Below, in pieces: positions 21,563-31,641 of a stretch of 64,000 bases of DNA (the first letter of the stretch is position 1; each line of letters begins with the position of its first letter). The stretch spans positions 3,720,001 to 3,784,000 of the forward strand of contig NZ_JAZIFX010000001.1 of the NCBI RefSeq assembly GCF_036634175.1, written 5' to 3'. The notes under the pieces are model-generated. The model saw only the letters and a program-made list of their open reading frames with translations. It made no database searches and was not told the DNA's origin. The position numbers and the translations under genes were made by a program. Source of the stretch: Streptomyces sp. P9-A2 (lineage in GTDB: Bacteria > Actinomycetota > Actinomycetes > Streptomycetales > Streptomycetaceae).

Positions 21563-22903
21563 TCACCCCCGCACCCCGGCCTTCTCCACGCTCGCGTCCA
21601 CTCCTGTGGCGACCACCGACGCCCCCTCGACGATGACGGGGGCGGCGCCGGCGGCAAGGACGGGAGCCGGAGGCGGGGCCGGGGCGGCGAGGGTGGAGGT
21701 CTCGGACGGCAGCCGCCGCATCAGCAGCGCGTACCCGAGTCCCGCCACCGTGCCGACGACGGCGCACATGCCCCACAGCCACTCCGCCCCGTACCGGTCG
21801 ATGACGAGTCCCGACATCAGCGGGGCGACGAGCGCGGCGACGGCCCACGACATGGTGTACATGCCCTGGTAGCGCCCGCGCCCGTGGGCCGGGGACAACT
21901 GGACGACGAGTCCGGTCTGGGTGGGCGCGTTGATGATCTCGGCGAGCGTCCACACGCAGACGGTGAGGGCGAAGACGCCCACCGACCCGGCGAAGGCGGT
22001 GAGGCCGAAGCCGTACCCGGCGAGCAGCGCGGAGGCCACCAGCAGGCGGCCGGGATCGCGGTGCTCGATGAACCGGGTGACCGGGATCTGCAGGACGACG
22101 ATGAGGACGCCGTTGACCGCGATGGCCATGCCGTACTCGGCCGGGGTGAACCCGGCCGCCCCCATCGCGACGGGCAGTCCGACGGCCCCCTGCTGGAAGA
22201 TCAGCGCGACGAGGAAGGACAGCCCGACGACGCCCATGAACCGCCCGTCGCGGAGTACGGTCCCGAGCCCGACGGAGTCCGCACGCTCCTCCCCCGCGGC
22301 CTGGACGGGCTTCGACTCGGGGAGCTTCACGAAGACGACGATCGCGCAGATCATCGTCATCACGGCCTCGAGGAGGAACCCGGCGGCGTAGCTGTGCTCG
22401 GCGATGAACCCGGCGGCCGTGGTCGAGACGGCGAACCCGAGGTTGATGGCCCAGTAGTTGAGGGAGAAGGCGCGGATGCGGTCCTCGGGCCGGACGATGT
22501 CGGCCATCATCGCCTGGACGGCGGGCCGGGAGGCGTTGGAGGCCATCCCGACGAGGAAGGCGACGACGGCGATGGCGACGGGGTCGCGCACGAAGCCGAG
22601 CAGGGCGACGGACACCGCGGTGGACGCCTGCGCGACCAGCAGCGTGGGGCGCCGTCCGAGCCGGTCGGTCATCACCCCTGCGCCCAGCGAGGACAGCACT
22701 CCGCCGAGGCCGTGCAGGGCGGCGATGAGACCGGCGTAGGTGGCGGAGTAGCCGCGGTCGAGGGTGAGGTAGAGCGCCATGAAGGTGGCGACGAAGCCGC
22801 CGAGCCGGTTGACGAGGGTGCTCGTCCACAGCCACCAGAAGGCAGATGGCAGCCCGGACACGGTCTCCCGCATCGCACGCCCGGTACGCCCGATGAACAC
22901 CAC
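21563..22903 (-). CDS. MFS transporter
   Basis: A major facilitator of about 446 aa with roughly 12 hydrophobic segments. The loop 2-3 signature GVMTDRLGRRPTLL (about residues 70-83) marks the family, and a central basic loop (KLPESKPVQAAGEERADS) divides the halves. A 45-residue Ala/Pro-rich tail is cytoplasmic. The substrate is unknown; the pattern resembles drug-efflux MFS proteins. Start placement is uncertain: GTG 22903 follows a G-run, and ATG 22873 (MRETVSGLP) is equally plausible. It is convergent with the nickel-binding protein gene. Confidence 0.85.
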   Translation of the reverse strand: MVFIGRTGRAMRETVSGLPSAFWWLWTSTLVNRLGGFVATFMALYLTLDRGYSATYAGLIAALHGLGGVLSSLGAGVMTDRLGRRPTLLVAQASTAVSVALLGFVRDPVAIAVVAFLVGMASNASRPAVQAMMADIVRPEDRIRAFSLNYWAINLGFAVSTTAAGFIAEHSYAAGFLLEAVMTMICAIVVFVKLPESKPVQAAGEERADSVGLGTVLRDGRFMGVVGLSFLVALIFQQGAVGLPVAMGAAGFTPAEYGMAIAVNGVLIVVLQIPVTRFIEHRDPGRLLVASALLAGYGFGLTAFAGSVGVFALTVCVWTLAEIINAPTQTGLVVQLSPAHGRGRYQGMYTMSWAVAALVAPLMSGLVIDRYGAEWLWGMCAVVGTVAGLGYALLMRRLPSETSTLAAPAPPPAPVLAAGAAPVIVEGASVVATGVDASVEKAGVRG

Positions 22904-23063: not shown

Positions 23064-23825
23064 ATGGCCGACGCACCGTACAAGTTGATCCTCCTCCGCC
23101 ACGGCGAGAGCGACTGGAACGCGAAGAACCTGTTCACCGGCTGGGTGGACGTCAACCTCACCGAGAAGGGCGAGAAGGAGGCAGTCCGCGGCGGTGAGCT
23201 GCTGAAGGACGCCGGCCTGCTGCCCGACGTACTGCACACGTCGCTCCAGAAGCGCGCCATCCGCACCGCCCAGCTCGCGCTGGAGTCCGCCGACCGCCTG
23301 TGGATCCCCGTGAACCGCAGCTGGCGCCTGAACGAGCGCCACTACGGCGCCCTCCAGGGCAAGGACAAGGCGCAGACCCTCGCGCAGTACGGCGAGGAGC
23401 AGTTCATGCTGTGGCGCCGCTCCTACGACACCCCGCCGCCCCCGCTGGACACCGACGACGAGTACTCCCAGTTCGACGACCCGCGCTACGCCACCCTCCC
23501 GCCGGAGCTGCGCCCGCGCACGGAGTGCCTGAAGGACGTCGTCGTCCGCATGCTCCCGTACTGGTTCGACTCGATCGTCCCCGACCTCCTGACCGGCCGC
23601 ACCGTCCTGGTCGCCGCCCACGGCAACAGCCTGCGCGCCCTGGTCAAGCACCTCGACGGCGTCTCCGACGCCGACATCGCCGGCCTGAACATCCCGACGG
23701 GCATCCCCCTGTCCTACGAACTCGACGCCGACTTCAAGCCCCTCAACCCGGGCGGCACCTACCTCGACCCGGACGCCGCGGCGTCGGCCATCGAAGCGGT
23801 CAAGAACCAGGGCAAGAAGAAGTAG
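23064..23825 (+). CDS. gpmA: 2,3-bisphosphoglycerate-dependent phosphoglycerate mutase
   Basis: A 253-aa glycolytic mutase. The phosphorylated His is in [10 protein letters not shown] (H13), the phosphate-binding Arg in [12 protein letters not shown], the catalytic acid in [12 protein letters not shown], and the second catalytic His in [16 protein letters not shown] near residue 190. The C-terminus ends in a Lys cluster (GKKK). Start ATG 23064. A terminator follows within 15 bp. The last codons plus terminator are repeated at 31934-32050, marking an island boundary. Confidence 0.96.
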
Positions 23826-24001: not shown

Positions 24002-24880
24002 TCAGCGGACGGTCATCCGGTGCCAGACCTCTTCCGCCCGCTGCCGAAGGGCGGGAACGAGTTCCAGGTTGTCCCCGCGTTCGGCGCTCTGCAGGAGTTC
24101 GGTGATGACCACCAGTTCCGCGAAACGCCCGCCCTCACTGTCGAGAACGGTGGAAAGTTCCCGGCGGACGCGCTCGGCGGTCGCCGGCATCCCGACGCTG
24201 TAGGCGTGCAGCAAGGCGGCGTCGTAGCCGGCCGGGGCGGTGCCCCAGCCTTCCCAGTCCAGGATGCCGAGTTCGGGACCGGCGAGGTTGGCCCAGTGCA
24301 GGTCGCCGTGTGCGGTGGACCACGCGGGCGGCATCGTAGGGACGGGCCCGCCGAGGAAGGCGAGGTACTTCGGCATGGCGCGGTCCAGGTATGCCTGACG
24401 TACGGCCGTGCGGTCGGTGCGGACCGCCGAGAGACAGGCGAGGGTCGTGCGGAGGTCGCTCCACCAGGCTGTCGTCAGAGGGGGTGCAGCGGGGACGAGC
24501 GCGGGGGTGGGCGACACGGTTGTGCCGGCGACGTGGTCGTACAGCTCTGCCTTGTACGCGTTCTCTCCCTCCGTCCACTGCCGTGCGAGACGCAGACAAG
24601 GGCGCGGCACCTGCCGGGGCACCAGCCGTTCGGCATCCTCCGGCCCCGTCCACAGCTTGCCGCTTGCCTTGTCCACCGGGCTGTGGACAACACGCAGCCA
24701 TCCTTGCCCGTAAGGCCCGGTGACGGGTCGGCCCAGTGTGCGTCCCCTCCACCCCCACACCTCCTGCGCCCCTCCACCGGACGGCCGAGCGTCAGGGACA
24801 GTCCTGAGGAAGCCGCACGCCACGGTATGGGCCCTCCGCATGCGCGCGGCGACCTCGGGGTCGTCAGGTTCCGAGGACAT
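24002..24880 (-). CDS. aminoglycoside-phosphotransferase-fold kinase (last gene of peptide/JmjC unit)
   Basis: A 292-aa APH-type protein. The kinase C-lobe is clear: Brenner motif HGDLHWAN with catalytic D193 and N198 (about 191-198), then ILDWE with metal-binding D208. The N-lobe is weak: no obvious P-loop, only LWTGPEDAERLVPRQ before the C-lobe. It could phosphorylate a small molecule or a peptide side chain. Its ATG at 24880 overlaps the aldo/keto reductase stop by 17 bp, so it belongs to the same transcript as the 47-aa peptide and JmjC genes. APH-fold kinases do occur as tailoring enzymes; that role is inference. Confidence 0.8.
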   Translation of the reverse strand: MSSEPDDPEVAARMRRAHTVACGFLRTVPDARPSGGGAQEVWGWRGRTLGRPVTGPYGQGWLRVVHSPVDKASGKLWTGPEDAERLVPRQVPRPCLRLARQWTEGENAYKAELYDHVAGTTVSPTPALVPAAPPLTTAWWSDLRTTLACLSAVRTDRTAVRQAYLDRAMPKYLAFLGGPVPTMPPAWSTAHGDLHWANLAGPELGILDWEGWGTAPAGYDAALLHAYSVGMPATAERVRRELSTVLDSEGGRFAELVVITELLQSAERGDNLELVPALRQRAEEVWHRMTVR

Positions 24881-25760
24881 CGATGACCTTTCTCAGGTGA
24901 TCGGGCGGCAAGGGCTCGCAGGCCGCAGCGCCCAGAGCGTCAGCCCAGTGTGCCGGTGTGCTCGCCGACAACAGGACACGCGACACCCCGGGAGCCGACA
25001 GAGCAACCAAGAGCGCGGCCTGCGCCGGGGAGGCAGCGGAATCGATGATGCGCACCAGCTCATCCGTCATCGCGCCGAGCAGTTCACCGCCTCCGAGTGG
25101 GGCCGATGCGAAGACGTCGAGTCCCGCTTCCCGGGCTTCTGCCAGTGCTCCGCGCCCGTCGAGTGCGTCCGCCACCACGGCGAGTTGAATGAGTGAGACC
25201 GGGAACTGCACGGCTCGGAAGTGGTGGTGTGGCCCGCCCACGGTTTCCGCAAGTGCCGTGAGTTCAGGAACGGTGAACATGCCTCCCGACAGGCCCGCCC
25301 AGGTGGCGACGCCGTAGCCGCCGATCTTGTCGGCGTCCGCCGCACTCTCCAGTTCCTCGAATGCCTCAGTCAGCGTCCGTGACAGATCAGCCCGGCCTGT
25401 CCGGCCGTGTTCCGGATTGTGGACGAAAACCAGGTCCGGGACGCGGCCGAGGCGGGCGCGACTGCGGGCGAGCTGCCAAGCGATGTAGGGACGTGCCAGG
25501 CAGTGGCCTTGCTCCCGGTCGTACGGCGGCACGCCGGCATCCCGAGCAGCCTGCCGGTCGGAGTCGGGCACGAAGCCGACCTTGGTCGAGACACCTACCT
25601 GGGGACAAGCGTCGAGTACCGGACGCAGAGATGCCTCGGCCGTACCGGACGCGTAGTTCGGCGCCGTGTCGATCCATGTCACCCCGGCGTCCACAGCCGC
25701 GGCCACCGACTGCGACACGTCACGGCACCGGTACGTCCCGGCCGCGAACTGAGCGCTCAT
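24864..25760 (-). CDS. aldo/keto reductase in peptide/JmjC unit
   Basis: A 298-aa TIM-barrel oxidoreductase with the full AKR tetrad: D31 and Y36 (WIDTAPNYASGTAE), K60 (VSTKVG) and H114 (LVFVHNPE). The C-terminal half keeps the NADPH-binding pattern (VFASAPLGGGELLG, then SAPGVSRVLLSAST). It would reduce or oxidise carbonyl/alcohol groups using NADP(H). ATG 25760 overlaps the JmjC stop (ATGA) and the gene overlaps the kinase start, so it is translationally coupled on both sides. In this context it may act on a carbonyl formed on the peptide or on a product made by the JmjC oxygenase; the substrate is unknown. Confidence 0.88.
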   Translation of the reverse strand: MSAQFAAGTYRCRDVSQSVAAAVDAGVTWIDTAPNYASGTAEASLRPVLDACPQVGVSTKVGFVPDSDRQAARDAGVPPYDREQGHCLARPYIAWQLARSRARLGRVPDLVFVHNPEHGRTGRADLSRTLTEAFEELESAADADKIGGYGVATWAGLSGGMFTVPELTALAETVGGPHHHFRAVQFPVSLIQLAVVADALDGRGALAEAREAGLDVFASAPLGGGELLGAMTDELVRIIDSAASPAQAALLVALSAPGVSRVLLSASTPAHWADALGAAACEPLPPDHLRKVIDVLGT

Positions 25761-26941
25761 CCTGCCCGCCCCACGGCCGCGACCTCGCCGTCCACCAGTT
25801 CGCTCACGAGTTGCGCCACCTGCCCTACGCGAAGTCCGGCAGCTTGGGCGAGTGTGTCCAGGCGGTGATGGCCTCCGTCCATGAGGAGGGACAGCAGGGG
25901 CGCGGCCTGCGGGGAGAAGGTCCACTCCTCTCCCCCTGCTGCCAGTACCGCGTGACCCTCCGTGTCGCTGTGCAGCCGGGCGCGGGCGGTTACGAGGTGT
26001 ACGGCGAGAGCGGGGTCGGGCGGTACGCCCTCGACGTACGGCAGTGAGGGCACGAGGCGGGCCCGGTCGGTGGCGTCCCGCACGGTGAGGAAGCGGTCGA
26101 GCAGCGTCCCGTCCTCGAACTCCTTCATGACGAGGTCGCCCAGCGACCGCACGAAGTCCGCCTTCTCCTCCTCGGTCCCGAAGCGCGGCAGGTCGCTGCG
26201 CACGGTCGTTTCGCGGCGCAGGTCCTCGGAGAGCCACTGGAGGAGGTCGGCGCCGGTCGTCGTCTGCATGCCGCAGGTGAGGTGGAGGGAGTGGACGCCT
26301 TCGGAAGCGTCGACCGCGTGCCACCAGCCGCGTGGCAGGTACAGCATGTCTCCTGCATGCAGGACCAGTTCGACGAGCGGCTCGTTCGGCGGCGGTTCGG
26401 GTACGTCCGTGTCCCGGTGGAGCGGGGCCTGCCTCGTGGGGCCGTGGATGCGCCATCGTTTGGCGCCGTCGAGCTGGAGGACGAGCACGTCGTGGTCGTC
26501 CCAGTGGACTCCGAAGCCTTCCTCGGGGGTCCAGGAGGCGTAGGCGTTGACCTGGATGCCGGTGCGCAGGTGTCGTTCCAGCTCCTGGGCGAGGTGGCCG
26601 ACGGCCGGGTGCAGCTCGTCGATCGCATCCAGGACGAGGGTGGCGCCCTCGGCAAGGTGGTGGTGCAGTTCGGCGGGCTTGAGCCGGTGCCACACGGTGC
26701 TGCGACGGGTGGTGACCGGCGCCGAGTAGGCGTGCTGGGGCATCGCCTCGCCGCCCGCCGAGAGGCGCAGGCGGGGCGGTTCGAGCCGGTGGTGGGTGAG
26801 CAGGGCGTTCAGGTCGTCCCAGCCGAGCAGGTCGCCGAAGCGGCCCGGCTCGCCGGGAAAGTGGCGGTAGGTGTGGCCGTACACCTGGGCGAGGAAGTCC
26901 TCGCCCAGGCGCGCGACCACCTCGGGTACGTCGGTGGTCAT
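25757..26941 (-). CDS. ROX-type JmjC Fe(II)/2-oxoglutarate oxygenase (cupin)
   Basis: A 394-aa oxygenase of the NO66/MINA/YcfD type. The double-stranded beta-helix carries the iron facial triad H146-x-D148 (FGVHWDDHD) and distal H208 (LYLPRGWWHAV), with K161 and W163 as likely 2-oxoglutarate/fold residues. A C-terminal winged-helix-like part (about 300-390, LSLLMDGGHHRLDTLAQAAGLRVGQVAQLVSELV) matches the ROX architecture. Known ROX enzymes hydroxylate Arg or His in ribosomal proteins. Here it starts 15 bp after a 47-aa Arg-rich peptide gene, with GAAGGG as ribosome site, suggesting the peptide is a substrate. That link is inference. Confidence 0.88.
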   Translation of the reverse strand: MTTDVPEVVARLGEDFLAQVYGHTYRHFPGEPGRFGDLLGWDDLNALLTHHRLEPPRLRLSAGGEAMPQHAYSAPVTTRRSTVWHRLKPAELHHHLAEGATLVLDAIDELHPAVGHLAQELERHLRTGIQVNAYASWTPEEGFGVHWDDHDVLVLQLDGAKRWRIHGPTRQAPLHRDTDVPEPPPNEPLVELVLHAGDMLYLPRGWWHAVDASEGVHSLHLTCGMQTTTGADLLQWLSEDLRRETTVRSDLPRFGTEEEKADFVRSLGDLVMKEFEDGTLLDRFLTVRDATDRARLVPSLPYVEGVPPDPALAVHLVTARARLHSDTEGHAVLAAGGEEWTFSPQAAPLLSLLMDGGHHRLDTLAQAAGLRVGQVAQLVSELVDGEVAAVGRAG

Positions 26942-26956
26942 CGGTTACGGCCCTTC

Positions 26957-27100
26957 TCAGTCGTTGCCGTCGGAACGACCGGTGGAACCGCCGTCCGAGG
27001 GCTGCTCGGCCCGCGAACGGGCGGCGGCGATCCGGCGACGGGCGACCAGCAGACCGCGGCCCTCCTGACCACTGTTCGTGGTCACGTTCTGTTCGGGCAT
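26957..27100 (-). CDS. 47-aa Arg-rich peptide, candidate modified-peptide precursor
   Basis: A short open frame with an excellent ribosome site (GAAGGAGA, 8 bp spacing) and ATG 27100. It begins MPEQNVTTNSGQEGRG, has a central basic stretch LLVARRRIAAARSRA, and ends in a polar Gly/Ser/Asp tail; no Cys, Trp, Tyr or Phe. It is the first gene of a unit with the JmjC oxygenase (15-bp gap), aldo/keto reductase and kinase, all overlapping. Small size, first position and coupling to a protein-hydroxylase-type enzyme fit a RiPP precursor whose Arg residues are modified. Alternatives: a small regulatory protein or a substrate tag. No known precursor family recognised. Confidence 0.7.
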   Translation of the reverse strand: MPEQNVTTNSGQEGRGLLVARRRIAAARSRAEQPSDGGSTGRSDGND

Positions 27101-27266
27101 GACTGTGTCTCCTTCGGTGTGGGCGGAAGCGAGCCGGTTGTTCGCTCCCTGGTTTGTGGCGTCTCCAGCTGCCCCACCAGGCGGTGGCGGCCCGGCCGGA
27201 GGCGCCTGTACCCGACTTCGGGACTCGTGCATCCGAAGTCAGGTGGTCGGTGGTCAGGGGCAGTGA

Positions 27267-27806
27267 TCAGGTGGCAGTGACATGCGCACGGGAGCCGCTG
27301 AGCACGTCGCATCCCGGTTCGGCAACCGCCACCGGCCGCTGTGCACCCCCGAACGAGGGATCGCTTTCGCATGCGGCGGGAGACAGGCGGGACGGCGAGA
27401 GTGAGCAACCGTCGATCTCGAACCAGACCGCCTTTCCTTCTGGGGTAGGCCGGGAGCCCCACCTCTGAGCAAGACCGGCGACCAACTGCAGTCCGCGCCC
27501 GCTCTCCTCGTCCAAGTCGGCCGGCGCCCGCTGCGGGAGAAGACCGCCTTCCGTGTCCTCGGCCTCCAGCCGCACACGGGTCCCGTCCCAGCTCACCGTG
27601 ACCTGACAGCCCTCCCCGGTGTGCACCACGGCGTTCGCGATCACCTCGCCGGCCAGCAGCTCCAGCGTCTCGACCGTGTCCTCCGCGAGCGGCAAGTCCC
27701 AGTCACGGACGATCGCGACAACCCTGCGACGAGCGGAAGACACGGAGCCGACGTCGGACGGGACACGGAAGGACGAGGACTTCGGGGCGGGTGTTCGGAA
27801 CGTCAT
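27267..27806 (-). CDS. HATPase anti-sigma-factor-like ATP-binding protein
   Basis: A 179-aa protein with the RsbW/SpoIIAB-type GHKL fold: N-box ELLAGEVIANAVVHTG (about 48-63), G1-like EDTEGGLLP and G2 DEESGRGLQLVAGLAQRWG, then KAVWFEID closing the domain. The last 45 residues are unique. In Streptomyces such proteins abound and are thought to act as anti-sigma/serine kinases. Start ATG 27806, after GGAAGG. It is divergent from an XRE regulator, a pairing frequent in these genomes, and lies upstream of the peptide unit on the same strand with a 166-bp gap. Confidence 0.88.
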   Translation of the reverse strand: MTFRTPAPKSSSFRVPSDVGSVSSARRRVVAIVRDWDLPLAEDTVETLELLAGEVIANAVVHTGEGCQVTVSWDGTRVRLEAEDTEGGLLPQRAPADLDEESGRGLQLVAGLAQRWGSRPTPEGKAVWFEIDGCSLSPSRLSPAACESDPSFGGAQRPVAVAEPGCDVLSGSRAHVTAT

Positions 27807-27984
27807 GGAGGGCGAACCTTCCTGGCTGTGTGCGTCGGAGTTCCACACAACCGCCCACAGCCACCAACGCCCAGAGCACAATGGACGCACCAATGCGGCA
27901 TCCGTGCGTCACACCCACGCCTCACCTGGGGAATCACGCAGCCGCACGTCCCTGGCAGGGCAGGCGAAACGGGGAGACAGCGTC

Positions 27985-29154
27985 ATGGCGCACCACCGCA
28001 ACGGCCTCGCAGCGCGCCGCCGAACCGTGGGCCTCACCCAAGAGGCTCTCGCCGAGCACATGCAGGTGGACCGCTCCACCATCGCCCGCTGGGAATCAGG
28101 CCGCACCGCCCCGCAGCCCTGGATGCGTCCACGGCTGGCCCGCCTTCTGCGCGTCAATGCCGAGGGCCTCAATGACCTACTGACCGCACGGCTACCAAGT
28201 GGCACGCAGGATCAACAGGACGCCCTCGATTACGCGCTGCTTCACCCGGACCGCATCGATCTGCCCGCCGTCGCCACCCTTCGCACGCGCTTCGACGACT
28301 GCGCCGCTCGCTACGACCGTGTGCCTTCGGCCGGCCTCATCGCAGAAGCAGCGGCGCAGCTCAACCGCATCGACCAGCTTGCCGCCGGCTCCGCCCGCGG
28401 ACGCGTTCAAAGGGAACTCCACGCCCTGCACGCCGATGCGTGCACTCTCATGGGGCAGTTGGTCTGGGACGCCTCCCAGCGCCGCGACCACACCACCGCG
28501 AAGACGTACTACGAGCAGAGTGCCGACCTCGCTCGGCACCTACGGGACACCACTCTCGAAGCCCACGCCTTACTGCGCACCTGCTACGTCGCGCTGTACG
28601 GCGCCCGCGACGCGCAGGCCGGGCTCGCGCTCGCGGAGCAAGCAGCCGAAACCGCCGAGCGCACGAGTCCCGCCCTGGCCGGGTTGGCGCTCCTGCACGT
28701 CGCCGAGGCACACGCCATACTGCGGTCGGCCTCGGACTGCGAACGTGCTCTCTCCGGCGCAGAACGCCAACTCGCCCACGTGGACGGCAGCGACGCCGCC
28801 GCCGACCTGGTGTCACCCACCCAGTTCGGGCGCCTCGCAGGATCCTGCTACCTCTCCCTCGGAGACCACCGACGGGCCGAAACCCTGCTGGCCGGCACGG
28901 CGGAGAAGCTACGGGACAGACGAAAGTCACGCGCGATCGTGCTGGGGAACCTTACGCTCGCCCGTATCCGTCAACACGATGTCGAGGCGGGGGTGGCCAG
29001 CCTCACCGAAGCCATCGCCGAGCTGGAGACCACACGCGGAGGCGGAGGCATGAACATCGTCTTCGGAGCCGCCCGCGAACTGCGCCCCTGGCGACAGGAG
29101 CCCCTCGTCGCAGAGGTCCACGACAGACTGCTCGGCTTGATGACGGCAGCGTAG
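27985..29154 (+). CDS. XRE-family regulator with TPR-like C-terminal region
   Basis: A 389-aa regulator. The N-terminal HTH (about 8-62: LAARRRTVGLTQEALAEHMQVDRSTIARWESGRTAPQP) is Cro/C1-type; the rest (90-385) is Ala/Leu-rich helical hairpins in TPR style (ALHADACTLMGQLVWDAS..., ALLRTCYVALYGARDAQAGL...). TPR-XRE regulators often respond to small signals or partner proteins. Start ATG 27985 follows GGGGAGACAG. The intergenic 178 bp toward the HATPase gene has GACGCA (27884) and TGCGTC (27905), a weak inverted pair. It could control the peptide/JmjC unit; this is contextual. Confidence 0.85.
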   Translation: MAHHRNGLAARRRTVGLTQEALAEHMQVDRSTIARWESGRTAPQPWMRPRLARLLRVNAEGLNDLLTARLPSGTQDQQDALDYALLHPDRIDLPAVATLRTRFDDCAARYDRVPSAGLIAEAAAQLNRIDQLAAGSARGRVQRELHALHADACTLMGQLVWDASQRRDHTTAKTYYEQSADLARHLRDTTLEAHALLRTCYVALYGARDAQAGLALAEQAAETAERTSPALAGLALLHVAEAHAILRSASDCERALSGAERQLAHVDGSDAAADLVSPTQFGRLAGSCYLSLGDHRRAETLLAGTAEKLRDRRKSRAIVLGNLTLARIRQHDVEAGVASLTEAIAELETTRGGGGMNIVFGAARELRPWRQEPLVAEVHDRLLGLMTAA

Positions 29155-29899: not shown

Positions 29900-30234
29900 C
29901 GACCGAAGCGGGAAGTATCCGCTCCCCACAAGCCCCACACCACAGACTGAGTTACAACCTTCTCTACTGGTTCAAGGCGGCTCGCTCCGCTCCCCGCGCG
30001 CGGCCCGGCCCCCGGCCGGGCCTGCGCTCCTGCCTCCGCCCCGCTCCAGCCCGGCCGGCGCCCGAGCCGCGCGCACAGCAATCAACCGCCGACACCAGAG
30101 CAGAGGCCCGCCCGTACTGGGGTGGAGCACACTCCGGAGCCTGCCTCAACCCCCGCTGCAGCGGCTAGAATTCTCGCCTTGCTACGCGATGACAACCCGC
30201 CTTGTGTACGACAACCGACTCTACGGGGGAACTG
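29900..30234. other. gene-free interval in island
   Basis: 335 bp without a supported gene. GC-rich up to about 30160, then a sharp drop in GC beginning with the leader of the AlbA-like gene, suggesting a junction of differently derived DNA near 30165-30180. Confidence 0.5.
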
Positions 30235-31641
30235 ATGGAAGAGCGGAACATCCCACTTTCGGAAGCTACGAAGATCATCTCGAGGCAAGAGTCGCATTTC
30301 TGGGACTTTAAAAGCGCCGAGTCTGACGGTAAGAAGATTCAAGAGATTGCGACGGCGCTCGCAAATGCCGAGGGTGGAGAATTCATCGTCGGCATCGAGG
30401 ACGAAAAGCGAGTGTCCGGAATCTACCGCTGGCAAGGTTTCAAAAATATCGAAGCCACAAATTTCATTCATCAGAACTTGGTTAATGAGACACAGCCGCC
30501 GATCCCGTACGACATGGAATACCTTTGGGTTAAGGGGGCGTCAGAGCGTGGAGTGTGCTGCCTTGTCACAGTGCAGAAGAGTGCAGACGTCCACAAAACC
30601 TCTAGGGGAGAGGTACATCAGAGGCGAGGAGCCCAAACCCTCAAGCTGACCGGTCATCGGATTGCAGACCTTGCGCTTTCCAAAGGGGCGAGGTCATACG
30701 AAGACCAACTCCTTGAGGACTATGAGCTGGACGAAATCAAGGAAGAGGATGAGCTAGCCTACTTCCTTTCAAACTATAGCCCCGCGACCTCGGCGGACAA
30801 ATTCTTGACTCGCCAAAGGCTCGTATCGAAGAAAGATCGTAAGGCTACAGTATCCGCCGCAATTCTCTACTCCGAGGAACCAGCAGCCGTTGTGCCCAAG
30901 CGGTGCTCGGTGAAGATCGCTCGATATGAGAGTAATGAAGGACCAGATCGCAAGTTCCTCAAGGGTACGCCACTAACCATCGATGGACCTGCGCGAGCCC
31001 TGATCGAACGCACGCTCGATGCAGTGGCGGAGATCATCGAGGCTGTCCCAATTTTGGGGACCGACGGCCAGATGTCGCCAGTGAAGTATCCGCCAGAAGC
31101 CCTCAAGGAAATTATCGTCAACGCCGTCATCCATAGGGATTATAACGTTTCCGACGACATCTTGATCTCAATCTTCGACAACAGAGTCGAGGTGAGGAGT
31201 CCTGGCCGACTCCCCGGTCACATGACGACCGAGAATATTTTGACCGATCGATTCGCTCGCAACCCTAGTATTGTCCGAATGTTGAACAAGTACCCCGACC
31301 CGCCGAATAAAGACATCGGCGAGGGGCTCGATACCGTAATGAGCGCAATGAAAGCGGCAAAACTGAAGGAACCTCAGTTTGTCGTTGAGGACAACGCTTT
31401 CGTTGTTATTCTCGCACACACGCCGCTTGCGCGACCCGAAGAGCTAATTCTTGAGTACCTGCGCAATAATGCCGAGATTTCCAACAAGGTTGCGCGATCA
31501 CTCACCGGGATCGCCTCTGAAAACCGCGTAAAGCAAGTATTTTACAAACTGAAGAAAGCGGGCATGATCGAGCCTGTTCCTGACAGGATTCGATCGCAGT
31601 ATGCCTGGCGATTGACAGAAAAGGGGAAGCGTGGAAAGTAG
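30235..31641 (+). CDS. AlbA_2/Schlafen-type ATP-binding protein (AT-richer, acquired)
   Basis: A 468-aa protein. The AlbA_2 (Schlafen-core) domain covers about 12-125: ESHFWDFKSAESDGKKIQEIATALANAEGGEFIVGIEDEKRVSGIYRW. An HATPase_c_4-like domain covers about 280-400, with KEIIVNAVIHRDYNVSDDILISIFDNRVEVRSPGRLPG and NKDIGEGL. A winged helix ends the protein (SNKVARSLTGIASENRVKQVFYKLKKAG). Usually called transcriptional regulators, some Schlafen-like proteins act in phage defence. Codon use is clearly less GC-biased than its neighbours (many A/T third positions), so it was acquired from another source. Start ATG 30235 after GGGGGA. Confidence 0.85.
   Translation: MEERNIPLSEATKIISRQESHFWDFKSAESDGKKIQEIATALANAEGGEFIVGIEDEKRVSGIYRWQGFKNIEATNFIHQNLVNETQPPIPYDMEYLWVKGASERGVCCLVTVQKSADVHKTSRGEVHQRRGAQTLKLTGHRIADLALSKGARSYEDQLLEDYELDEIKEEDELAYFLSNYSPATSADKFLTRQRLVSKKDRKATVSAAILYSEEPAAVVPKRCSVKIARYESNEGPDRKFLKGTPLTIDGPARALIERTLDAVAEIIEAVPILGTDGQMSPVKYPPEALKEIIVNAVIHRDYNVSDDILISIFDNRVEVRSPGRLPGHMTTENILTDRFARNPSIVRMLNKYPDPPNKDIGEGLDTVMSAMKAAKLKEPQFVVEDNAFVVILAHTPLARPEELILEYLRNNAEISNKVARSLTGIASENRVKQVFYKLKKAGMIEPVPDRIRSQYAWRLTEKGKRGK

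What the first reader, a model, noticed from the sequence alone, without database searches (positions are those of the whole stretch)
24002..27100. Four-gene operon: 47-aa Arg-rich peptide, ROX-type JmjC oxygenase, aldo/keto reductase, APH-fold kinase
The sequence shows a 47-aa peptide with a strong ribosome site, a 15-bp gap to a JmjC oxygenase with intact H146/D148/H208 triad, then a 4-bp overlap to an AKR with complete D31/Y36/K60/H114 tetrad and a 17-bp overlap to an APH-fold kinase with HGDLHWAN and ILDWE. Known ROX enzymes hydroxylate Arg or His of proteins; the peptide's centre carries an ARRRIAAARSRA stretch. Inference: a RiPP-like pathway in which Arg side chains are hydroxylated, oxidised/reduced and possibly phosphorylated. 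No known RiPP class with this exact set comes to mind.
Basis: partly seen in the sequence, partly recalled or inferred. Interest (0 to 1): 0.85.

Follow-up and report, generated by a model that had tools for sequence, protein, structure and literature searches.

The report
Asp-core peptide with JmjC oxygenase operon
A four-gene Streptomyces operon pairs a tiny conserved protein with an oxygenase, a reductase and a kinase-like enzyme, and comparison with related actinobacteria suggests an undescribed family of ribosomal peptides modified on an aspartate-rich tail.

Summary
The operon is real and on the minus strand, as described. The 47-aa peptide is a conserved gene: 68 of 75 JmjC loci from genome contigs carry it just upstream (L050 holds a variant seen). 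AKR and APH are each found in 65 of those 75 loci.
The Arg-rich centre is a leader-like helix that reads AVEKI or AVEDI in other genera. The near-invariant part is the C-terminal SDGG-S/G-T-G-x-S/T-D-x-N-D.
A second precursor family (122 homologues) beside related JmjC genes keeps the leader (LVVAVE..L..VQDR) and changes the core, but keeps at least three Asp (75 of 75 and 120 of 120 listed peptides). Twenty more distant JmjC loci had no such peptide (0 of 20). The C-terminal domain of the JmjC resembles ROX winged helices and, less closely, RiPP recognition elements.
Best reading: an undescribed RiPP-like class in which the JmjC hydroxylates core Asp/Asn residues, followed by AKR and APH tailoring. 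The chemistry is inferred, not shown. The literature searches made found no description.

The parts
26957..27100 (-). 47-aa precursor-like peptide MPEQNVTTNSGQEGRGLLVARRRIAAARSRAEQPSDGGSTGRSDGND
   Evidence: 75 homologues; upstream of JmjC in 68 of 75 loci; no Pfam or NCBIfam match
27109..27115 (-). ribosome-binding site GAAGGAG, 8 nt before the ATG
   Evidence: read from sequence, (one search lists similar sites in relatives, but it chose starts by such sites)
27011..27055 (-). leader-like stretch, residues 16-30 GLLVARRRIAAARSR
   Evidence: alignments; profile match to the second precursor family
26960..26998 (-). conserved C-terminal core, residues 35-47 SDGGSTGRSDGND, with Asp36, Asp44, Asp47 and Asn46
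   Evidence: 75 of 75 phmmer homologues hold D-x(3-5)-G-x-x-D-x-N-D; three Asp in 74, four in 1, no Cys in 75
25757..26941 (-). JmjC (ROX-like) 2-oxoglutarate/Fe(II) oxygenase, 394 aa, H146/D148/H208
   Evidence: PF08007; NO66, MINA53, YcfD among nearest in PDB; catalytic residues 70 of 70
25760..26032 (-). C-terminal winged-helix / RRE-like domain of the JmjC (residues 304-394)
   Evidence: AlphaFold2 pLDDT 94, strands then three helices; ROX winged helices and RREs such as PqqD
24864..25760 (-). aldo/keto reductase, 298 aa, tetrad D31/Y36/K60/H114
   Evidence: PF00248; tetrad conserved; in 65 of 75 loci
24002..24880 (-). APH-fold phosphotransferase, 292 aa, HGDLHWAN and ILDWE
   Evidence: PF01636; motifs conserved; in 65 of 75 loci
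27979..29154 (+). divergent XRE-type HTH regulator of the NsdA family, likely regulator (association only; start chosen by eye)
   Evidence: PF13560, NF053720; XRE-type genes upstream in 31 of 44 loci
27267..27893 (-). histidine-kinase-like ATPase (HATPase_c_2) upstream of the peptide, same strand; a neighbour mainly in close Streptomyces and Kitasatospora relatives
   Evidence: PF13581

Best explanation
The operon is a RiPP-like pathway. The peptide is the precursor. Its residues about 16-30 form a leader helix, probably bound by the RRE-like C-terminal domain of the JmjC. Its last 13 residues (SDGGSTGRSDGND) are the core. The JmjC most likely hydroxylates core Asp (Asp36, Asp44, Asp47) and/or Asn46, probably on the beta-carbon. 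The AKR and the APH-fold enzyme then act on the same peptide, for example by redox change and by phosphorylation of a hydroxyl. An upstream XRE-type regulator probably controls the operon.
Shown here: gene conservation, linkage, leader/core split, intact active sites, RRE-like fold.
Inferred: leader binding, site and type of hydroxylation, the AKR and APH steps, regulation, the biological role.
For: Peptide upstream of the JmjC in 68 of 75 loci. AKR and APH each in 65 of 75. In 296 class genomes, 10 have a peptide at E < 1e-12, each with a >500-bit JmjC directly downstream; 11 genomes have such a JmjC.
Related JmjC genes (213-258 bits) carry a second precursor family with a matching leader and other cores. 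Profile match: hhalign E 6.5e-6, probability 85. P0122, P0140 and P0145 join that leader to an SDGGSTG[RK]SDG core.
Control: 0 of 20 more distant JmjC loci have such a peptide. At least three Asp in 195 of 195 cores (75 plus 120 listed of 122).
RRE-like domain. JmjC nearest to NO66, MINA53 and YcfD-type enzymes, recalled to be beta-carbon hydroxylases of His and Arg. JmjC in a RiPP has precedent: BipG hydroxylates Orn in its precursor (PMC12707348, passages).
Confidence: 0.62

Rival explanations
1. Arg hydroxylation: the JmjC hydroxylates Arg side chains in the basic centre or Arg42, like YcfD on ribosomal protein L16.
For: YcfD-like Arg hydroxylases are among the nearest structures; R28 and R30 are invariant in 32 close homologues and near-invariant in the 36-row set.
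Against: The basic run reads AVEKI or AVEDI in other genera; R42 is K or V in several; the second family has no fixed core Arg. R28 and R30 lie in the leader-like helix.
Confidence: 0.1
2. The peptide is not a substrate but a small partner (activator, chaperone or regulator) of the JmjC, whose real substrate lies elsewhere.
For: The core is nearly invariant across the first clade; no protease or exporter was widely shared in crude gene clusters; linkage to the JmjC is tight.
Against: The partner model does not predict a kept leader with changed cores, as seen between the two families, nor two more conserved tailoring-type enzymes in one operon.
Confidence: 0.15
3. The product is an intracellular or secreted peptide signal read by the neighbouring XRE-type (sometimes TPR-bearing) regulator, in the manner of RRNPP systems; the enzymes mature the signal. 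This concerns the role and can hold together with the best explanation.
For: XRE-type HTH genes lie upstream in 31 of 44 loci, in 14 sequence clusters, against 1 of 63 downstream proteins; own genome has 91 HTH_31 matches per 8.39 Mb; TPR_12 in 5 of 80 upstream proteins. A fixed core suits a signal.
Against: XRE genes are common regulators; the sensor parts differ (DUF5753, SLOG); no exporter or importer was widely shared. The seed profile came partly from the same loci. RRNPP features are recalled, not tested.
Confidence: 0.2
4. The JmjC does something other than simple hydroxylation, such as a crosslink, backbone cleavage or N-dealkylation at Gly-rich positions.
For: 2-oxoglutarate enzymes in RiPPs are reported to form a Cys-Tyr crosslink and to cleave the backbone oxidatively (PMC12636437, introduction and passages); the cores are Gly-rich.
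Against: No Cys in 193 of 195 cores and no Tyr in the 75 phmmer cores; nothing here points to cleavage.
Confidence: 0.12

Closest known systems
Biphenomycin pathway JmjC, BipG / BpmG (PMC12707348, PMC12257519; passages seen)
   Same: JmjC-domain 2-oxoglutarate enzyme that hydroxylates a residue of a ribosomal precursor peptide
   Different: That cluster has MNIO, B12-radical SAM, arginase and TldD-type protease and an FRF core; none of these is among the ten window proteins scanned, the core here is Asp/Gly/Ser-rich, and AKR and APH are present
ROX oxygenases NO66, MINA53, YcfD
   Same: Nearest solved structures; same triad, JmjC_2 domain and C-terminal winged helix
   Different: Those act on ribosomal proteins (PDB titles); here the gene is coupled to its own short peptide, AKR and APH
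RRE-JmjC fusions of PF08007 (PMC12710340; abstract, outline, section 6, passages and parts 1-2 of the reference list seen)
   Same: Reports RRE-like folds fused to JmjC domains in fish and algae and says that the closest bacterial homologues lie in RiPP-like contexts
   Different: The parts read name no precursor, core, AKR, APH or product; whether this operon family is among those homologues could not be seen
Class V lanthipeptide kinase and APH-family hydroxylysine kinase (recalled, no call)
   Same: APH-fold enzymes acting on a peptide residue or on a hydroxylated amino acid
   Different: No Cys in the first-clade cores, so no lanthionine there; the operon holds only the four genes

Membership tests
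RiPP pathway (general) | short genetically encoded precursor beside its modifying enzyme, conserved together | tested here: met
   68 of 75 loci; 10 of 10 class genomes with a strong peptide match; control 0 of 20
RiPP pathway (general) | leader kept while the core varies | tested here: met
   between the two families; within the first clade alone the core is nearly fixed
RiPP pathway (general) | leader-binding domain (RRE fold) | tested here: inconclusive
   fold and element order fit, but ROX winged helices score higher, no Foldseek match reaches E 0.001, and binding was not tested
RiPP pathway (general) | post-translational modification and release of the core | not testable with these tools
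   needs mass spectrometry; no protease was widely shared in crude gene clusters
ROX-type JmjC oxygenase | HxD...H iron triad in a JmjC_2 domain | tested here: met
   PF08007; 70 of 70 rows
ROX-type JmjC oxygenase | C-terminal winged-helix domain | tested here: met
ROX-type JmjC oxygenase | hydroxylates a ribosomal protein | not testable with these tools
   needs an assay
Class V lanthipeptide | Ser/Thr plus Cys in the core for lanthionine (feature recalled) | tested here: not met
   no Cys in 75 of 75 first-clade phmmer cores
Biphenomycin-type RiPP | aromatic FRF-type core | tested here: not met
   no Phe, Tyr or Trp in the 75 phmmer cores (composition); some Nocardiopsis-type tails have F, H or Y after the motif, without FRF
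RRNPP-type peptide signalling | XRE HTH plus TPR regulator next to the peptide gene (feature recalled) | tested here: inconclusive
   XRE-type gene upstream in 31 of 44 loci but TPR_12 in only 5 of 80 upstream proteins

The most novel reading that the evidence does not exclude
A widespread actinobacterial class of ribosomal peptides in which three or more obligatory core Asp residues become beta-hydroxyaspartates, giving a gene-encoded metal ligand (three bidentate sites would suit Fe(III)). Hints: never fewer than three Asp in 195 of 195 cores; a FhuF_C-type protein beside second-clade JmjC genes (L144 scanned, where the NCBI FhuF model scores below its cut-off; relatives in four of five loci); and a Suc_Fer-like (PF06999) protein in the third-clade loci without APH. 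Against: no sequence like the recalled DmdR/IdeR iron box in the window, no transporter in the operon, and the AKR and APH are unexplained.
Probability: 0.12. Interest if true: 0.9.

Novelty: new variant of a known kind. Interest (0 to 1): 0.72.

Why it matters
If true, a JmjC oxygenase is the founding enzyme of a sizeable RiPP-like family. It would be defined by a short leader, an Asp-rich core and, usually, AKR plus APH partners, and be spread over several actinobacterial families, its precursors called hypothetical proteins wherever the sources name them. It gives small, genetically simple substrates for ROX-type oxygenases outside the ribosome, a ready test of the RRE-like domain of ROX proteins as a leader reader, and an AKR and an APH for which the searches made found no described role on peptides of this kind.

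Tried and rejected
Arg-centred core: rejected from the alignments.

Selection test: pN/pS and codon-position counts gave no clean signal. GC-rich third positions depress synonymous change, and the 66 sequences were chosen by a protein motif, so the counts are not used as support.

Link between APH presence and Asn or Thr in the core: looked for by eye; no clean rule.

Conserved fifth operon gene: crude ORF clustering (first 22 clusters, first 14) showed no other family in more than 10 first-clade loci, apart from a 17-locus set of ORFs that lie antisense inside the AKR region. MFS (21563-22876) and phosphoglycerate mutase (23064-23825) were not labelled near the JmjC in other loci. XRE genes recur but differ by clade.

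Weak peptide matches: one search lists 18 of 296 genomes at E <= 0.01; the 8 genomes with best E between 1.2e-4 and 9.3e-3 were not followed up and are taken as chance.

Iron box: pattern recalled, no match with up to 3 mismatches. Promoter scan: none. Solved-structure sequence relatives: none for AKR (E <= 1e-3) or APH (E <= 0.1).

Peptides not found: L050 holds a variant missed by the pattern (seen). L051, L068, L069, L073, L074 and L075 gave none by the pattern; in L074 a motif match lies 2.2 kb upstream. In L046 the core is in frame but the leader reads in another frame. Among related JmjC genes L108/L139, L109/L142, L114/L145, L115/L128 and L120 (upstream DNA cut short) gave none.

AKR misses: L017, L035, L045, L050, L067, L068, L069, L071, L073, L075. 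APH misses: L030, L045, L050, L067, L068, L069, L071, L073, L074, L075; L019 has its APH 5.9 kb from the JmjC start.

The second-clade peptides (MDPIEVEVEDLAEVTSRD...) are linked to the third clade only weakly (hhalign E 1.5e-4, probability 52).
Full report
Observation. The gap of 15 bp and the overlaps of 4 and 17 bp are right, and GAAGGAG stands 8 nt before the peptide ATG. Pfam gives JmjC_2, Aldo_ket_red and APH; the peptide has no Pfam or NCBIfam match, and none of the three enzymes has an NCBIfam match. The catalytic residues are kept in relatives.

The peptide is a real gene. phmmer found 75 homologues of 42 to 78 aa; those with a named organism are Streptomyces and Kitasatospora. A scan of genome contigs with the JmjC gave 75 loci. 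Of these, 68 carry a matching peptide just upstream, one of them (L046) with its leader in another frame; L050 holds a variant that the pattern missed. The hosts include Actinomadura, Spirillospora, Actinocorallia, Nocardiopsis and Marinitenerispora. AKR was found in 65 of 75 and APH in 65 of 75. Of the ten AKR misses, L017 and L035 pass straight from JmjC to APH; L045, L050 and L069 have partial JmjC matches; L067 and L071 end at the contig end; L068, L073 and L075 have a JmjC without the other genes. The own genome has one copy. In 296 genomes of the class, 10 have a peptide at E < 1e-12, all with a >500-bit JmjC directly downstream, and 11 have such a JmjC. The eleventh, G143, gave no peptide and no AKR, but an APH. 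Eight more genomes have weak peptide matches (1.2e-4 to 9.3e-3) that were not followed up. Within the window's genus the peptide-JmjC pair is in 5 of 28 genomes, own included, so the operon is patchy.

What is conserved. In 32 of the 75 homologues, aligned, the invariant columns are M1, G16, L17, R28, R30, D36, G41, D44, N46 and D47. In a wider set of 36 they are M1, L17, D36, G41, D44, N46 and D47 (part of that set was found through the motif itself). All 75 phmmer homologues, which were not chosen by motif, hold D-x(3-5)-G-x-x-D-x-N-D. The Arg-rich centre is replaceable: GLVVAVEKIVAARGRA in Actinomadura-type and LVLAVEDIAAVRSRA in Nocardiopsis-type peptides. So the basic stretch looks like a leader helix and the acidic tail like the core.

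A further group, JmjC genes of 300 to 340 bits ('second clade'; 11 of 12 fetched loci from family f17, Nocardiopsis-type judged from shared genera), has a peptide MDPIEVEVEDLAEVTSRDITAGGDNDGTDSSSDFI or close in 8 of 12 loci (six of the eight built the profile). In L144 the neighbours are an S9 prolyl oligopeptidase, a FhuF_C-type protein and a phosphopantetheinyl transferase; relatives of these lie in five, four and four of L142 to L146. Its link to the other peptides is weak.

Control. Twenty more distant JmjC genes (105 to 129 bits by tblastn; 'ordinary ROX-like' is my label) from the same class sample were searched for the same peptides in the 600 bases upstream: none of 20 matched below E 0.5.

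The Asp rule. All 195 peptides (75, and 120 listed of 122) have at least three Asp from the core start on; 74 of 75 first-clade cores have exactly three and one has four. None of the 75 and two of the 120 have a Cys. Core starts were set by pattern, which itself needs one Asp; in a few long entries the pattern begins too early and inflates the count.

Mechanism. ROX enzymes are recalled to hydroxylate the beta-carbon of Arg or His; BipG hydroxylates the gamma-carbon of Orn. The invariant candidates here are Asp (and Asn46), so hydroxylation of core Asp/Asn, probably on the beta-carbon, is the favoured first step. The AKR and APH are intact and co-conserved, so later redox and phosphoryl steps on the peptide are likely, but their nature is inference. 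No protease or exporter was widely shared in crude gene clusters.

Regulation. XRE-type regulators lie upstream in 31 of 44 thinned loci, in 14 sequence clusters, against 1 of 63 downstream proteins (six of the eight profile seeds came from these loci). Pfam counts HTH_31 in 24 of 80 upstream proteins. Downstream, HTH_3 has 2 of 63, and HTH_31 is not among the 25 families shown of 90. The own genome has 91 HTH_31 matches in 8.39 Mb. The 44 loci were chosen by hand to drop near-duplicates; related clades still share descent.

Known or not. JmjC with RiPP, precursor peptide and Streptomyces gave 2 papers. JmjC with aldo-keto reductase and RiPP gave none. Core strings gave none. RiPP with aldo-keto reductase, phosphotransferase and precursor peptide gave none. 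JmjC with RiPP gave 93 papers, 25 listed; judged by the listing, the relevant ones are the two biphenomycin papers and the RRE survey. A cupin and hydroxylase search gave one of the same papers. Most subscription papers are outside that library, so an unseen description is possible. Xia et al. 2025 (2-oxoglutarate enzyme crosslink in RiPPs) was not held and is known here only from a citing paper.

Verdict. It is a candidate undescribed RiPP class with unproven chemistry.

Noticed in passing
window 27979-29154 (+), and upstream of many related loci: XRE-type HTH regulators (some with TPR, DUF5753 or SLOG parts) recur upstream of the operon in 31 of 44 loci, in 14 sequence clusters.
   Followed up: partly
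L142-L146: A second JmjC operon with an S9 oligopeptidase, a FhuF_C-type protein and a phosphopantetheinyl transferase (annotated in L144; relatives in the others); a peptide like MDPIEVEVEDLAEVTSRDITAGGDNDGTDSSSDFI was found in 3 of these 5 loci.
   Followed up: partly
L130-L133, L135, L137: In third-clade loci without APH a Suc_Fer-like (PF06999) protein lies near the JmjC instead.
   Followed up: partly
L038, L043, L044, L049, L071, L072: Actinomadura-type operons have an upstream pair: a RibD_C protein and a protein with HTH and SLOG/LDcluster4 similarity (L038 scanned; counts; clusters).
   Followed up: no
L045, L046, L050, L069, L074: Several JmjC copies give only partial or split matches, which suggests decay of the operon in some Streptomyces.
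   Followed up: no
window 30202-31641 (+): Protein with Schlafen AlbA_2 and RecG-C-like domains.
   Followed up: no
window 23064-23825 (+): Phosphoglycerate mutase is the convergent neighbour here but was not found near the JmjC in the other 75 loci, so the place of the operon differs between species.
   Followed up: no
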